From the NCBI GenBank assembly GCA_023382455.1, contig JAHDVX010000001.1:186001-250000 (forward strand): a stretch of DNA of 64,000 bases. Reading direction: 5' to 3'. This document shows, one piece after another, positions 44,571-50,755 of the stretch. A model generated the notes under the pieces. The model made no database searches, was not told the DNA's origin, and was given only the letters and a program-made list of their open reading frames with translations. This DNA is from Flavobacteriales bacterium (GTDB lineage Bacteria > Bacteroidota > Bacteroidia > Flavobacteriales_F > PHOS-HE28). The first letter of the stretch is position 1. Every line of letters begins with the position of its first letter. Made by a program: the position numbers and the translations under genes.

Positions 44571-45791
44571 ATGAGCGACGACCGCACCATCCTCCACCTG
44601 GACCTGGACAGCTTCTTCGTAAGCGTGGAGCGCACGCACGACAAGGCCCTCATCGGCAAGCCGGTGCTCATCGGCAGCGACAGCGACCGCGGCGTGGTGG
44701 CCAGCTGCAGCTACGAGGCGCGGGCCTTCGGCGTGCGCAGCGCCATGCCCATGCGCACCGCCAAGCAGCTCTGCCCGGAGGCCATCATCATCCGCGGCAA
44801 CAGCGGCGAGTACATGCGCTGCAGCGACGAGGTCACCGAGATCATCCGCGAACACGTGCCGCTGTTCGAGAAAAGCAGCGTGGACGAGTTCTATGCCGAC
44901 CTCACCGGCACGGAGCGCTTCTTCGGCGCAATGAAGCTGGCCACGGAACTGCGCGCGCGTATCGCCAAGGAGACCGGCCTGCCCAACAGCTTCGGGCTCA
45001 GCATCAACAAGACGGTGAGCAAGGTGGCCACCAACACGGCCAAGCCCAACGGCCAGCGCGAGGTGGAACGCGGCACCGAGAAGCCCTTCCTCGCACCCAT
45101 GGCCATCGAGGCCATCCCCGGCGTGGGCGAAAAGACCGCGCACCTGCTGCGCAGCATGGGCGTGGCGCGCATCCACACCCTGCAGGAACTGCCCGTCAAC
45201 CTGATGCAGCGGCTGCTGGGCGAGCACGGCCCCGTGCTGTGGCGCAAGGCCAACGGCATCGATCCCAGCCCCGTGGTGGCCTGGCACGAGCGCAAGAGCA
45301 TCAGCACCGAGCGCACCTTCGAGCGCGACACCATCGACGTGGTGAAGCTGCGCGGCCTGCTCACCGCCATGGCCGAGAACCTGGCCTATCAGCTGCGCAA
45401 GGGCGGCAAGCTCACCAGCTGCGTGGCCGTGAAGGTGCGCTACGCCGACTTCAACACGCACACGCGCCAGCAACGCATCCCCTACACCGCGTGCGACCAC
45501 CTGCTGCTGCCCGCCATCCACGAACTCTTCCGCGCGCTCTACGACCGCCGCCAGCGCATCCGCCTCATCGGCATCCGCTTCAGCCACCTCGTCGGCGGCG
45601 GCCACCAGATGGACGCCTTCACCGACACGCAGGAGGCCATGAACCTCTACCAGGCCATGGACAAGGTGCGCCGGCGCTTCGGCGACCGCATGGTGATGCG
45701 CGCCAGCGGCATGGCCGCCCGGAGCATCGGCCGCATGGACAACCCCTTCGACGGGCAGGCCCCGGTGCTGCTGGCGAACAGGAGGAGCTGA
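44571..45791 (+). CDS. dinB: DNA polymerase IV (Y-family)
   Basis: A 406-residue Y-family polymerase with catalytic residues in LHLDLDSFF (Asp11) and SSVDEFYADLTGTE (Asp105, Glu106). The fingers block CSYEARAFGVRSAMP is present, followed by helix-hairpin-helix AIPGVGEKTAHLLRSMG and a C-terminal little-finger domain. I see no terminal beta-clamp peptide of the usual QLxLF type. It performs translesion synthesis. It is followed at 47095 by a DnaE-type polymerase on the opposite strand; in Bacteroidota these two often form a damage-tolerance pair. An inverted repeat six bases upstream suggests dedicated control. Confidence 0.93.
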   Translation: MSDDRTILHLDLDSFFVSVERTHDKALIGKPVLIGSDSDRGVVASCSYEARAFGVRSAMPMRTAKQLCPEAIIIRGNSGEYMRCSDEVTEIIREHVPLFEKSSVDEFYADLTGTERFFGAMKLATELRARIAKETGLPNSFGLSINKTVSKVATNTAKPNGQREVERGTEKPFLAPMAIEAIPGVGEKTAHLLRSMGVARIHTLQELPVNLMQRLLGEHGPVLWRKANGIDPSPVVAWHERKSISTERTFERDTIDVVKLRGLLTAMAENLAYQLRKGGKLTSCVAVKVRYADFNTHTRQQRIPYTACDHLLLPAIHELFRALYDRRQRIRLIGIRFSHLVGGGHQMDAFTDTQEAMNLYQAMDKVRRRFGDRMVMRASGMAARSIGRMDNPFDGQAPVLLANRRS

Positions 45792-46158
45792 CGAGGGATC
45801 AGACGATCAGAAAATGAAAGACCATCCGATCATCTGATCATCTGATCGTCTGATTTTCTGATCCGCATTTGGGCGTGCCTTCGCCCTCCAACGACCATTT
45901 CGCATGGGCTGCGCCCGACAAAGCCCGACGAAGGAGGGCGAAGTCGGGTGCTCCGCTGTAGCTGCCTTGGCCCGGCCTGCATCCACGGCGCTGCGGGGGC
46001 TCCTGCGCGCCTTCGCTGAGCTATGGCGACGCGAAGGTCGCCTCCTCGCGGCACGTGGCTGCACGGCCGTCCCTTCAGCAGGCTGCCGCTGCGCCCCCTC
46101 ACGCAAGCCGCATCCCGCTACATGTGCGATCTTGCCGCGGCAACAGAACTTTCACGCC
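45792..46158. repeat. gene-free region with inverted octamer repeats
   Basis: The first 75 bases hold GATCAGACGATCAGAAAATG (an inverted copy) followed by five direct octamers of the form CTGATCNT (45827-45866), so the two arms can pair. The rest is GC-rich sequence with GCGCCTTCG/CGAAGG-type short inverted repeats and no credible gene. Confidence 0.65.
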
Positions 46159-47073
46159 ATGGCTGTACCCGATTACCAGAGCATCATGCTCCCTTTGTTG
46201 AAGTACGTGTCCAACCAAAAGGTCCATACCCTGCGCGAAGTGGTGGATGGCTTGGCATCACACTTCAAGCTCACGGAGCAAGACCGGCGTGAAATGCTTC
46301 CCAGCGGCATGCAAGCCGCGTTCGACAACCGCGTTGGCTGGGCACGGACCTATCTGAAAAAGGCCGGATTACTTGATTCGCCCAAACGAGCCACAATACA
46401 GATCACCCCACGCGGCATCCAGGTGCTCCAGGAAAATCCTCCTCGGATCGACGTTGCCTACCTGAAGCGCTTTGAGGAGTTTGTCGCGTTCCAAAGTGCC
46501 AAACGGGAAAGCAGGGAATCCGAGCCTGTATTGGAAGAAAGCAATGGACGCACCCCGGAAGAGACCATCGAGAGCGGTTATGAACAAGTGCGTACCGCCC
46601 TGGGCCAAGAGCTTCTTTCCAAGGTACAAAGCCTCACTTGGATGGATTTCGAGCGTCTCGTTGTTCAGTTGCTCGTCCGCATGGGCTATGGCGGCTCCAT
46701 GAAGGACGCAGGCCGCGCACTCACAAAAAGCGGCGACGAAGGCATCGACGGCACCATCAAGGAGGACAAGCTTGGTTTGGACGTGATCTATATCCAAGCC
46801 AAGAAATGGCAATCGGGGAATACCGTGGGCCGTCCGGAGATCCAGAAGTTCGTGGGGGCGCTTGCCGGGCAAGGTGCCAAGAAGGGTATCTTCATCACCA
46901 CCTCAACCTTCACCAAAGAAGCCCGCGAATACCAGCCGCGCAATGAGACAAAGATCGTCCTCATCGACGGTGAGGAGCTCACGCAACTGATGATCGATCA
47001 CGACCTCGGCGTTACCACCCAGCGCACCTACGCCGTCAAGCGCATCGATAGCGATTTCTTCGGGGAGGAATAA
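46159..47073 (+). CDS. mrr: Mrr-type restriction endonuclease
   Basis: A 304-residue protein with an N-terminal winged-helix Mrr_N domain (about residues 5-95, VPDYQSIMLPLLKYV...) and a C-terminal Mrr catalytic domain. Catalytic landmarks: WMDFERLVVQLLVRMGY, SGDEGIDGTI (Asp197) and IYIQAKKW (Gln213, Lys215), the PD-(D/E)XK variant in which Q replaces the second acidic residue. Mrr-type enzymes cut modified (methylated) DNA. It stands alone between dinB and the DnaE-type gene and has somewhat lower GC than both, consistent with acquisition. The ATG at 46159 matches the family start; upstream open frame is low-complexity repeat sequence. Confidence 0.92.
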   Translation: MAVPDYQSIMLPLLKYVSNQKVHTLREVVDGLASHFKLTEQDRREMLPSGMQAAFDNRVGWARTYLKKAGLLDSPKRATIQITPRGIQVLQENPPRIDVAYLKRFEEFVAFQSAKRESRESEPVLEESNGRTPEETIESGYEQVRTALGQELLSKVQSLTWMDFERLVVQLLVRMGYGGSMKDAGRALTKSGDEGIDGTIKEDKLGLDVIYIQAKKWQSGNTVGRPEIQKFVGALAGQGAKKGIFITTSTFTKEAREYQPRNETKIVLIDGEELTQLMIDHDLGVTTQRTYAVKRIDSDFFGEE

Positions 47074-47094: not shown

Positions 47095-50000
47095 TCACCT
47101 TTCCCCATACCTCGGGTCCGGCTTCCACGGAAGCTTCTCCACGCTTTGCGTGCGCAGGGCACAATGCCCGAACTCCTCCTCCACCACGCCGGTGAGCCGG
47201 TACACGCCCCGGCCCCTGAAGGGATGGCGCGCCGCCACAGCGGGAAACTGCGTGCTGTCCCACAGGTCACCGCCGGTATCGATGAACGAACCGAAGGTCA
47301 TGCGCTGCCCGTGGGTGGTGGTGGTGCTCTTCACGTGGACCATGTAGCCGAGCATGGTGACGCGCTTGCCGATGTACTGGTGCATCTCCCGCTGAAGTAT
47401 CGCGTTCCGGCCATTTTCTGATCTTCTGATCGTCTGATCATCTGATCCGCCTTCCACCAAGGAGAACGGATCGCACAGCGGAAAGCCCAGCAGCTCCAGT
47501 TCATCGTAGGCGTCGGCCAGGGGATAGTGGTGCAGCTCGGGCAGCACGGGCTCCTCCACCTTGGTGATGAAGAAATCGCCTTGGCAACGCCCGGCGGCGG
47601 CCGCTTCCTTGCCCGTGTGCAGCAGCGTGAGGTCCCACAGCAGTTCGGGCTTGCTGCGTCCGGTGAAGCGCAAGGCACCCGCGCGGATGAGGATGCGCGC
47701 CTGCTCCAGCGGCAAGGGTACGCGGTGCAGCAGGTCCTCCAGGCCGGTGAACGGCCCGTGGCGTTCGCGCTCGCGCAGGATCAGCCGCACGGTCTCGTCG
47801 TTGAGGCTTTTGATGTTGGCCAGGCCGAGGAAAATGCGGGGCTTCGCAGGGATTGCAGGAGGCGCGTGATCGCACCTGTCGCGTCGACCCAGTGGGTCGA
47901 CTGTACAAGTGCTTCGATCCATTTCAGCGCCTCCGGTCATCTCCATTTTCCGATCGTCCGATCGTCTGATTTTCTGATTGTCTGATCGTCTGATCTTCTG
48001 ATCCTTTGATCTGCGAAGCACACACAGCTCCCCGCTCACATTCACGCACGGCGCCTCGATCACCGCCCCATGGCGCTTGGCCTCGTGCAGGTAGAACTCG
48101 GTGCTGTAGAATCCGCCGAAGTTGTTGGCCACGGCCACGAGGAATTCCAGCGGATAATGGGCCTTCAGCCACAGGCTCTGGTAGCTCTCCACGGCGTAGC
48201 TGGCGCTGTGGCCCTTGGCGAAGCTGAAGCTGGCGAAGCTCTCGATCTGCCGCCAGACCTCGCGCGCCTGCTCGTCGGGACGGCCCATGGCCTTGCAGTT
48301 GGAAAAGAATTTCTCCTCCACGGCCTTGAATTCGGGCCGCTCGCGGAAGCGGGCCGTCATGCCCCGGCGCAGGATGTCGGCCTCCTCCAGGCTGAGGCCC
48401 GCGTAGTGGTGCGCCACCTTCAGCACGTCCTCCTGGTACACCATCACGCCGTAGGTATCGGGCATGATCTCCAGCAATTCCTTGGGTGCGCGCCGCACAC
48501 GCTCGGGATCGTTATGGCGCAGGATATACTCGCGCATCATGCCGCTCTCAGCCACGCCGGGCCGGATGATGCTGCTGGCGGCCACCAGGGTGAGGTAGTC
48601 CTCCACGCGCAGCTTCTTCAGCAGCATGCGCATGGCCGGGCTCTCCACGTAGAAGCAGCCCACGGTGTCGCCGGTGCGCAGCAGCTGCTTGATGGCGGGA
48701 TCTTGCTTGAAACGGGGGATAGCGTGGATGTCGATGGCGGCTTCCCCACTGGCCACAGGGCGCCTGTTGGGTCGACCCATTGGGTCGACGGTACAGGCGC
48801 CCTGATCACCCTCCGGACGGGCCATCCCCCCCACCAGCTCCACCGCATCCCGTATATGGCCCAGGCCGCGCTGGCTGAGGATGTCGAATTTGTGCAGGCC
48901 GAGGTCCTCGGCTTCCAGCAGGCTGAACTGCACCACGGGGAAGCCCTTGGGCGGGCGGTGCAGCGCGCTGTAGCTGGTGATGGGCTCCTCGCTCACCAGG
49001 ATGCCGCCGACGTGGATGCCGAACTGGTGCGGCATGCCGATGATGCGCTGCGCGTAGCGCACCACGGCGGTGGCCACGCGGTCGGCATGGCCGCTGCGCA
49101 CCAGCTCGCTGGGGCGACCGCCGCCGTAGTAGCTGCGGCCCTCGCTGAGCGCATCAATCTCGGCGGGCGGCAGGCCCAGGGCCTTGCCCAGCTCGCGCAC
49201 CGCGCCGCGCCATTGGAAGGTGGTGTAGGTGGCCACCTGCGCCGCATGGATACCGCTTGTACCGGCACCCTGAGCGGAGCCGAAGGGGCCGTTGTACTTG
49301 TCAAAAATGTAGCGGAACACCTCGTCGCGGTCCTTCCAGCTGAAGTCGATGTCGAAGTCGGGCGGCTTCTTGCGCGCGGTGCTGATGAAGCGCTCGAAAT
49401 AGAGGTTCAGCTCGATCGGGTCCACATCGGTGATGCCGAGGCAATAGGCCACCAGGCTGTTGGCGCCGCTGCCGCGCCCCACGTGGAAGAAGCCGCGGCT
49501 TTGGGCGTAGCGCACGATGTCGTGGTTGATGAGGAAGTAGCTGATGAAGCCCATGCGTTCGATCACCTCCAGCTCGTGCTGCAGGCGGGCCAGGGCCGTG
49601 GGCGCGAGCCGCACGTAGCGGCGGTGCAGGCCCTCACGGGCAAGCAGGTGCAGCTGTTCGCGGTCGGCGGCGGCGCTGCTGCCGAAGACCTTGGGCGTCT
49701 TGTCGCTGCCGTCGAAGGCGATGCTGCATTGCTCCAGCAGCCGCTCGGCGTTGCGCAGCAGTTGCGGAAAATCACGATAAAGGTGCCGCACCTCCCCAGG
49801 CGTGCGGAAATGCTCATCGGGCGCGGCCAATTCTTCGGACGGCACCTGGCTCAGCAGCGTGTTGTGCGCCATGGTGCGCAGCAGGCGGTGCGTGTTGAAG
49901 GGCACCGGCCTGGTGGCCTGCGGAAAGGTGACGGGCAGCCAGGCCACCAGCTTTGCGGGCTGCTTCATCCAAGGACTGAACGGCAGGCGCGTGAGTTCGG

Positions 50001-50445
50001 CGGGGCGCACGCCGATGAACTCGTTGGCATGCAGTTCGCGCGGCGGCGTGGCGAGGGGCAGGATGAAGAAGGCTTCACCTGCTGTCATCCCGAGCATTAG
50101 CGAAGCGGTGCTCCGCAAGGCGCAAGGCGACTGAGGAGCCGAGGGAGACAGCAGGTGCCCATCCAGCAAATGCGGACTGAGCAACTGGTTCAGCTGCCGG
50201 AAGCCATCGTTGTTCCGGGCCAGTCCGATGTACAGTACCTGCGACCCCTGCCGGAACTCGATGCCGGCCACGGGGCGGATGCCGTGCTCGGGCGCCAGCC
50301 GCACGAAGTCCGGGATCCCGGCGGTACTGTGGATGTCGGTGAGGGCGAAGCTGCGCACCCCTGCCTTGGCCGCCTCTTCCAGCAGGGCCTCGGGCTTGAG
50401 CAGGCCGTACTTGAAGCTGAACCAGCTGTGGGCGTTGAGGAACAT
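47095..50445 (-). CDS. dnaE2: DnaE-type DNA polymerase III alpha subunit (likely translesion DnaE2/ImuC-like) with in-frame repeat insertions
   Basis: A 1,116-residue C-family polymerase. The N-terminal PHP domain begins NAHSWFSFKYGLLKPEAL; the catalytic Asp triad region is KPPDFDIDFSWKDRDEVF; HHH motifs and a C-terminal OB domain (GYMVHVKSTTTTHGQ) follow. I judge the core at about 980-1,000 residues, the size of the DinB-associated Bacteroidota DnaE rather than the larger replicative enzyme. The extra length sits in stretches derived from repeats: octamer arrays (47418-47449, 47951-48014), SalI-type palindromes (47883-47901, 48771-48789), an 18-base motif (49269-49286) and an 82-bp inverted-ended element (50076-50157). 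The frame stays open through all of them. The ATG at 50445 starts the PHP domain. Confidence 0.88.
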   Translation of the reverse strand: MFLNAHSWFSFKYGLLKPEALLEEAAKAGVRSFALTDIHSTAGIPDFVRLAPEHGIRPVAGIEFRQGSQVLYIGLARNNDGFRQLNQLLSPHLLDGHLLSPSAPQSPCALRSTASLMLGMTAGEAFFILPLATPPRELHANEFIGVRPAELTRLPFSPWMKQPAKLVAWLPVTFPQATRPVPFNTHRLLRTMAHNTLLSQVPSEELAAPDEHFRTPGEVRHLYRDFPQLLRNAERLLEQCSIAFDGSDKTPKVFGSSAAADREQLHLLAREGLHRRYVRLAPTALARLQHELEVIERMGFISYFLINHDIVRYAQSRGFFHVGRGSGANSLVAYCLGITDVDPIELNLYFERFISTARKKPPDFDIDFSWKDRDEVFRYIFDKYNGPFGSAQGAGTSGIHAAQVATYTTFQWRGAVRELGKALGLPPAEIDALSEGRSYYGGGRPSELVRSGHADRVATAVVRYAQRIIGMPHQFGIHVGGILVSEEPITSYSALHRPPKGFPVVQFSLLEAEDLGLHKFDILSQRGLGHIRDAVELVGGMARPEGDQGACTVDPMGRPNRRPVASGEAAIDIHAIPRFKQDPAIKQLLRTGDTVGCFYVESPAMRMLLKKLRVEDYLTLVAASSIIRPGVAESGMMREYILRHNDPERVRRAPKELLEIMPDTYGVMVYQEDVLKVAHHYAGLSLEEADILRRGMTARFRERPEFKAVEEKFFSNCKAMGRPDEQAREVWRQIESFASFSFAKGHSASYAVESYQSLWLKAHYPLEFLVAVANNFGGFYSTEFYLHEAKRHGAVIEAPCVNVSGELCVLRRSKDQKIRRSDNQKIRRSDDRKMEMTGGAEMDRSTCTVDPLGRRDRCDHAPPAIPAKPRIFLGLANIKSLNDETVRLILRERERHGPFTGLEDLLHRVPLPLEQARILIRAGALRFTGRSKPELLWDLTLLHTGKEAAAAGRCQGDFFITKVEEPVLPELHHYPLADAYDELELLGFPLCDPFSLVEGGSDDQTIRRSENGRNAILQREMHQYIGKRVTMLGYMVHVKSTTTTHGQRMTFGSFIDTGGDLWDSTQFPAVAARHPFRGRGVYRLTGVVEEEFGHCALRTQSVEKLPWKPDPRYGER
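47418..47449. repeat. octamer repeat array inside dnaE-type gene (4 units)
   Basis: Four 8-bp units CTGATCNT/CG in tandem, preceded by CATTTT. On the coding strand they are read as DDQTIRRSEN. Confidence 0.8.
47883..47901. repeat. SalI-type palindrome, copy 1 (inside dnaE-type gene)
   Basis: GTCGACCC AGT GGGTCGAC is a perfect 8-bp stem, flanked by imperfect outer arms GCACCTGT / ACAAGTGC. It is translated as CTVDPLGRRDRC. Confidence 0.8.
47951..48014. repeat. octamer repeat array inside dnaE-type gene (8 units)
   Basis: Eight consecutive 8-bp units of the form TGATCNTC (first two CGATCGTC), preceded by CATTTTC. Three units equal 24 bp, so the protein shows an 8-residue period: KDQKIRRS, DNQKIRRS, DDRKM. 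Confidence 0.85.
48758..48802. repeat. SalI-type palindrome with long outer arms, copy 2 (inside dnaE-type gene)
   Basis: The inner stem is GTCGACCC ATT GGGTCGAC (48771-48789). The outer arms GGGCGCCTGT (48758-48767) and ACAGGCGCCC (48793-48802) are perfect inverted copies. It is read in frame as CTVDPMGRPNRR. Confidence 0.85.
50076..50157. mobile_element. 82-bp MITE-like element inside dnaE-type gene
   Basis: Perfect 11-bp terminal inverted repeats CACCTGCTGTC (50076-50086) and GACAGCAGGTG (50147-50157) bound a GC-rich interior containing CCCGAGC and GCCGAGG. It is translated within the PHP-domain region without a stop. No transposase is encoded; any mobility would depend on an enzyme elsewhere. 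Confidence 0.6.
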
Positions 50446-50755
50446 GATTGCCGGATTTTCCGTCGTTCTTGAGACGTATAATATAGCATTGCCTATTCCT
50501 CTCGCAGGGTCTTTTTCCTCCCGCAGGGTCTTCGCCCCGAGACCCTGCGTCCTGAAATCCTGAACCCACCAGCGAAGGCTGCATCCCTCAGGGTCCACTG
50601 CGTGAGACCCTGAGGGAGCAGGGGGTATACCACAGAGTCCACTACGTGAGACCCTGAGGGAGCAGGGAAAGGGAAGGGAGTATAACTGCATGAGACCCTG
50701 AGGGAGCAGGGCGCCCGAATCAGGCGCATTCCCCTGCCCACCACCCTTCAGCGGT
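50446..50755. repeat. gene-free repeat region between dnaE-type gene and cysS
   Basis: It contains a weak -7-like TATATTAT on the minus strand (50485 to 50478), a 10-bp hairpin CGCAGGGTCT (50522-50531) / AGACCCTGCG (50540-50549), and a 12-bp hairpin TCCCTCAGGGTC (50584-50595) / GACCCTGAGGGA (50606-50617). Three tandem copies of a 44-bp unit containing GACCCTGAGGGAGCAGGG start at 50591, 50635 and 50679. Confidence 0.75.

What the first reader, a model, noticed from the sequence alone, without database searches (positions are those of the whole stretch)
47095..50445. A DnaE-type polymerase gene whose reading frame absorbs five or more intergenic-type repeat elements
Seen directly: two octamer arrays, two SalI-type palindromes, an 82-bp inverted-ended element and an 18-base shared motif all lie inside one open frame that also holds intact PHP, catalytic DxD and OB landmarks. 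Each repeat type also occurs between genes elsewhere in the window (45827, 52302, 22253). Their translations (KDQKIRRS-type octapeptides, CTVDPMGRPNRR, PFGSAQGAGTSG) do not look like polymerase sequence. Inference: elements that normally spread between genes are accepted in surface loops of this non-essential, probably translesion, polymerase, either as tolerated passengers or as newly made peptide segments.
Basis: partly seen in the sequence, partly recalled or inferred. Interest (0 to 1): 0.85.

Follow-up and report, generated by a model that had tools for sequence, protein, structure and literature searches.

The report
Hairpin repeats inserted in a polymerase
In a genus of uncultured Flavobacteriales, short hairpin-forming repeat DNAs that normally sit between genes have repeatedly entered, in reading frame, the same few loops of a DNA-repair polymerase and other conserved proteins, and are replaced so fast that sister species carry different ones; this extends to a new lineage and repeat type a phenomenon known from Rickettsia and from REP elements.

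Summary
The ORF at 47095-50445(-) is an intact DnaE2-type polymerase whose frame contains octamer arrays, SalI-core palindromes and two other dispersed repeats. Across the genus the same three loops (aa ~545-568, ~813-864, ~1000-1012) hold different repeat-derived peptides; homologues outside the family have no insert there. Inserts form hairpins (median fold z -3.7, -4.3, -1.6; gene body -0.1), are open in the used frame in 69/69 cases but only 18 and 11/69 in the other forward frames, and turn over within dS 0.17-0.38 while the core stays at dN/dS 0.15-0.22. AlphaFold leaves these segments disordered. Mfd shows the same pattern, replicative DnaE one such loop, IleS a rarer one; GyrA, RecJ and UvrA are essentially clean. 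Dihydroorotate dehydrogenase of this species carries one too, so "tolerated because non-essential" is not the rule. REPs inside DnaE2 and other repair genes were reported in 2013 (PMC3733652), and Rickettsia RPEs are the classic case. New here: lineage, repeat type (inverted octamer/heptamer arrays), genus-wide reuse of loops, measured turnover. Most likely translated, tolerated passengers; how they move is not shown.

The parts
47095..50445 (-). DnaE2-type C-family DNA polymerase, 1116 aa, start ATG at 50445
48742..48813 (-). Loop A insert (aa 545-568): SalI-core palindrome, 24-nt arms 48756-48779 / 48781-48804 (coding CTVDPMGRPNRR); short tight loop in homologues outside the family
47854..48009 (-). 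Loop B insert (aa 813-864): octamer array (47945-48011) plus SalI palindrome (47872-47912), coding SKDQKIRRSDNQKIRRSDD...CTVDPLGRRD; disordered in the model
47407..47448 (-). Loop C insert (aa 1000-1013): four-unit octamer array (47416-47447), coding SDDQTIRRSEN, before the OB domain
50076..50157 (-). Minor site D (aa ~97-124): 82-bp segment with 11-bp inverted ends CACCTGCTGTC/GACAGCAGGTG around a dispersed ~62-bp repeat
49252..49287 (-). Minor site E (aa 387-398): PFGSAQGAGTSG, containing the repeat CCCTTCGGCTCCGCTCAGGG
44571..45791 (+). Y-family DinB-type polymerase; with the nearby DnaE2 resembles the Bacteroidetes PolY2-DnaE2 pair
   Evidence: PMC6511836
45797..45863 (.). Intergenic octamer hairpin between dinB and mrr (reverse units 45798-45819, forward array 45823-45863)
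46159..47073 (+). Mrr-type restriction endonuclease gene between dinB and dnaE2

Best explanation
Hairpin-forming interspersed repeats (a ~41-bp SalI-core palindrome, paired or single octamer arrays, and several heptamer/octamer families) spread in this genus, mostly between genes. A few loops of conserved proteins accept them: three in DnaE2, three in Mfd, one in replicative DnaE, a rarer one in IleS. Once a loop has accepted one insert, later insertions, array expansions and deletions there are nearly neutral as long as the frame stays open, so the same loop is refilled with unrelated repeats in different species. The inserts are translated as disordered segments and the polymerase keeps working. 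Shown: repeat identity, open frame, hairpin propensity, shared sites, turnover, purifying selection on the core, predicted disorder. Inferred: translation, near-neutrality, and the way the elements move.
For: Different repeat peptides at the same three loops in the genus, no inserts in 11 homologues from other families and lengths of 975-1016 aa in 37 further distant homologues. Loop statistics: RecJ (63% identity) has no variable loop and GyrA only a tail; UvrA none internally. Octamer array found in 29 of 58 and SalI palindrome in 30 of 58 genomes searched, all in this one genus and none in the 23 genomes of other families. Inverted repeats ~43 times denser between genes than inside. Fold z-scores -3.7/-4.3/-1.6 against -0.1 for the body, p 6e-23. 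69/69 inserts open in the used frame, 18 and 11/69 in the other forward frames; species pairs at 85-95% core identity share only 17% of inserts. dN/dS 0.155-0.222 at dS 0.17-0.38. In Mfd the octamer unit that would read TGA in frame is altered in three species (codon reading by hand). pLDDT below 50 at 108-121, 388-393, 545-568, 819-864 and 1002-1011, mean 83.8.
Against: No transposition event, target-site duplication or mobilising enzyme was shown. Translation is inferred from sequence. Loop C is often a direct array with a weaker hairpin signal (median z -1.6). Two species (G021 with two TGA codons and G030 with a split frame) may hold damaged genes or assembly errors.
Confidence: 0.8

Rival explanations
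1. The hairpins are kept because the mRNA structure matters (for example a translational pause near a domain boundary that helps folding, or control of level). Sequence is free to change while the hairpin is conserved.
For: Loops A and B are occupied in almost all species and fold strongly whatever the repeat family; loop C precedes the OB domain.
Against: Homologues outside the family manage without; G021 loop A and G009 loop B are near-empty; intergenic copies are hairpins too, so the property belongs to the element class; loop C is weaker.
Confidence: 0.1
2. The inserted peptides are functional linkers or interaction segments selected for protein function.
For: Inserts stay open in frame; loops are nearly always longer than outside the family.
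Against: No sequence or length conservation (25 to 171 aa at the loop A region); replaced within dS 0.17-0.38; predicted disordered; the same peptides occur in unrelated proteins.
Confidence: 0.06
3. The inserts are not translated: ribosomes bypass them or they are removed from the RNA.
For: They are hairpin-rich and foreign to the protein.
Against: 69/69 are open in the gene's own frame while the other forward frames are mostly closed; the stop-producing octamer unit in Mfd is altered in three species.
Confidence: 0.02
4. Assembly or binning artefact of metagenome-assembled genomes.
For: Repeats are error-prone in short-read assemblies; one insert contains a run of N.
Against: Seen in near-complete assemblies with 1, 4 and 7 contigs (G009, G003, G024) and across the genus with open frames.
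Confidence: 0.02

Closest known systems
Rickettsia palindromic elements (RPE) inside protein-coding genes (PMC10969869; PMC3733652)
   Same: Palindromic repeats dispersed in a genome, many in-frame inside unrelated genes; proteins thought to remain functional.
   Different: RPEs belong to defined families, the best known ~150 bp long. Here several unrelated short families (41-bp SalI palindrome, octamer/heptamer arrays often in inverted pairs) use the same few loops, in a Flavobacteriales genus, with fast turnover.
GTAG- and CGTC-tagged REPs inside genes (PMC3733652)
   Same: That survey reports REPs inside DnaE2 genes, in R. conorii dnaE, and in uvrA, recBCD and others, with many hosts in DNA synthesis and repair; different REPs at about the same site in two Xanthomonas recB genes.
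   Different: The octamer arrays are not REPs. RAYT-like Y1 transposases are present here but none was tied to these elements. Genus-wide reuse of loops and turnover are quantified here.
Tandem heptamer repeats TAACTGA of Beggiatoaceae, Cyanobacteria and some Bacteroidetes (PMC4679880)
   Same: Short direct repeats, mostly intergenic, sometimes inside ORFs in the orientation that is free of stops.
   Different: There nearly always single direct arrays at protein ends or in hypothetical proteins; here often inverted pairs forming hairpins, inside conserved enzymes.
Bacteroidetes PolY2-DnaE2 gene pair (PMC6511836; short DnaE2 cores, PMC3919608)
   Same: Apparently active Y-family polymerase gene near a DnaE2 gene.
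   Different: Here an mrr gene lies between, dnaE2 is on the opposite strand, and DnaE2 is enlarged by inserts.

Membership tests
DnaE2-type C-family DNA polymerase | PHP, Pol3, (HhH)2 and OB architecture with catalytic aspartates | tested here: met
   Pfam domains; invariant D363, D365, D521; closest solved folds are Pol III alpha subunits
DnaE2-type C-family DNA polymerase | Distinct from the replicative DnaE1 of the same genome; dispensable | tested here: inconclusive
   A separate DnaE1 locus exists and the gene was not found in G020, which is ~99% complete; no phylogeny with reference DnaE2 was built and no knockout exists
Palindromic elements in coding genes (RPE-like) | Same element present at many dispersed loci, in and between genes | tested here: met
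Palindromic elements in coding genes (RPE-like) | In-frame, stop-free inside genes under purifying selection | tested here: met
Palindromic elements in coding genes (RPE-like) | Sequence homology to a described RPE/WPE family | not tested
   no reference RPE sequences were compared
REP element mobilised by a RAYT | RAYT gene flanked by the element | tested here: not met
   22 Y1_Tnp loci scanned: SalI element at one (about 2.2 kb away), octamers within the fetched stretch at five, other palindromes flanking several
REP element mobilised by a RAYT | GTAG or CGTC tetranucleotide at one end | tested here: inconclusive
   consensus CCTGTACCGTCGACCCANTGGGTCGACGC contains CGTC at the foot of the core stem, but the element's ends are not defined

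The most novel reading that the evidence does not exclude
Certain loops of DNA-handling proteins are maintained as permanent landing pads for hairpin elements because the hairpin itself (in mRNA or DNA) tunes production or folding of DnaE2 and Mfd, linking repeat activity to mutation rate.
Probability: 0.08. Interest if true: 0.88.

Novelty: new variant of a known kind. Interest (0 to 1): 0.58.

Why it matters
It gives a genus-scale series in which the birth, replacement and loss of translated segments in essential and repair enzymes can be followed over short evolutionary times, with internal controls (GyrA, RecJ, UvrA) that stay clean. That makes testable how noncoding repeats become protein sequence, why some loops are open to it, and whether the repair-gene bias reported for REPs (PMC3733652) is real: here DnaE2 and Mfd fit, but UvrA and RecJ do not, and IleS and dihydroorotate dehydrogenase break it.

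Tried and rejected
Pseudogene: rejected. Ancestral protein segments: rejected, absent outside the family. Inserts reflect general divergence: rejected, RecJ is more diverged and has none. Tolerated because non-essential: not the rule. Strict DNA-repair bias: not supported (UvrA, RecJ negative; IleS, PyrD positive). RAYT mobilisation: octamers near 5 of 22 Y1_Tnp loci but no consistent flanking, not pursued to significance. A search for inverted repeats inside genes of a 0.83-Mb sample found only 4 against 6 in synonymous shuffles, so most genes are free of them.

Full report
What is there. The gene at 47095-50445(-) encodes a 1116-aa DnaE2-type polymerase with PHP, Pol3-alpha, finger and HhH domains; its nearest solved folds are bacterial Pol III alpha subunits. 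Related species start at the same methionine (50445). A Y-family dinB lies nearby with an mrr gene between, which recalls the Bacteroidetes PolY2-DnaE2 pair (PMC6511836).

The repeats. Two octamer arrays, two SalI-core palindromes, an 18-base motif and a ~62-bp dispersed repeat lie in frame. The SalI core occurs 14 times in the genome, control 0, with consensus CCTGTACCGTCGACCCANTGGGTCGACGCnACAGG. Octamer patterns hit 63 times (overlapping hits counted), control 0. Both families were found only in this genus: 29 and 30 of 58 genomes searched, none of the 23 from other families. In a 0.83-Mb sample, inverted repeats are 234 per Mb between genes and 5.4 per Mb inside.

Genus-wide comparison. Alignment with same-genus proteins and 11 from other families shows three loops filled with different repeat-derived peptides: SDDQMIRR octamers, CTVDPxGR palindromes, QLSVVG...TTDNQQ, SQVTSHK...CDLSLGTCDF, GEWRMANG...SHSPFTN and others. 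Many are an array followed by its reverse complement. Composite inserts occur, such as octamers, an unrelated repeat and a SalI palindrome in G017 loop A. Near-empty loops exist (G021 loop A, G009 loop B). The 37 distant homologues from named genomes are 975-1016 aa long.

Are they hairpins, and are they read? Fold z-scores have medians -3.7 (A), -4.3 (B) and -1.6 (C), against -0.1 in the gene body. All 69 testable inserts are open in the gene's frame; only 18 and 11 are open in the other two forward frames. In Mfd, the unit of the second octamer arm that would read TGA in frame is altered in G000, G059 and G028 (sequences; codon reading by hand). This indicates selection to keep the inserts readable.

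Turnover. Species pairs with 85-95% core identity share (at least 70% DNA identity) 17% of inserts, while dS of close pairs is 0.17-0.38 and dN/dS 0.155-0.222. The core is conserved and the inserts are not.

Other genes. Mfd has several such loops, replicative DnaE one, IleS one in a few species. In the window's genome the octamer also lies in a dihydroorotate dehydrogenase gene and the SalI element twice in a P-type metal ATPase gene. GyrA (tail only) and RecJ are clean, as is UvrA apart from its N-terminus. These genes were chosen by hand, so the true range of host genes is unknown.

Structure. AlphaFold2 (mean pLDDT 83.8) leaves the insert segments below 50: 108-121, 388-393, 545-568, 819-864, 1002-1011. 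Two further stretches, 438-443 and 947-959, are also low and are not known inserts. The structural claim is disorder and lack of disruption of the fold; distances to DNA were not measured.

Relation to what is known. In-frame palindromes are known from Rickettsia (PMC10969869), and Di Nocera et al. (PMC3733652) list DnaE2 and R. conorii DnaE among REP-carrying genes. Heptamer arrays in ORFs are known (PMC4679880). So the kind is known. The lineage, the inverted octamer/heptamer type, the genus-wide reuse of loops and the measured turnover are, as far as the searches made here show, new. Seven searches of an open-access library were made; subscription papers could not be seen.

How it most likely works. 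Elements arrive in loops that tolerate extra residues; later changes there are nearly neutral while the frame stays open, so the loop becomes a standing site of replacement. The mobilising mechanism is unknown; a role of Y1 transposases is possible but not supported by flanking evidence.

Noticed in passing
50496-50711: The space between dnaE2 and cysS holds another repeat family: three copies of ACTGCGTGAGACCCTGAGGGAGCAGGG at 44-base spacing plus CTCCCGCAGGGTC copies.
   Followed up: no
L170:12831-16379: Mfd of the same genome carries a SalI palindrome and an octamer hairpin; genus-wide its loops vary the same way.
   Followed up: yes
L241:2-2746: A P-type metal ATPase gene carries two in-frame SalI palindromes about 60 bases apart.
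   Followed up: partly
L246:977-2158 (minus): Dihydroorotate dehydrogenase gene with an in-frame octamer array, DQKIRGSEDQKIRS.
   Followed up: partly
L169:11164-13086: Pyruvate/2-oxoacid oxidoreductase-type protein with an inserted peptide ESGTLSAAEGRVLSEVEA from another repeat.
   Followed up: no
G000:C4:119900-120450: Y1_Tnp (RAYT-like) gene flanked by CGACCCCTTCGGGGTCG palindromes, a likely genuine REP system.
   Followed up: partly
L199:12148-16383 (minus): Large ORF of 1412 aa starting MKKILGLDLGTTSIGWAVV, Cas9-like by its N-terminus; not searched further.
   Followed up: no
L053 and L043: In G030 the DnaE2 frame is split and in G021 it holds two TGA codons: possible decay or assembly error.
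   Followed up: no
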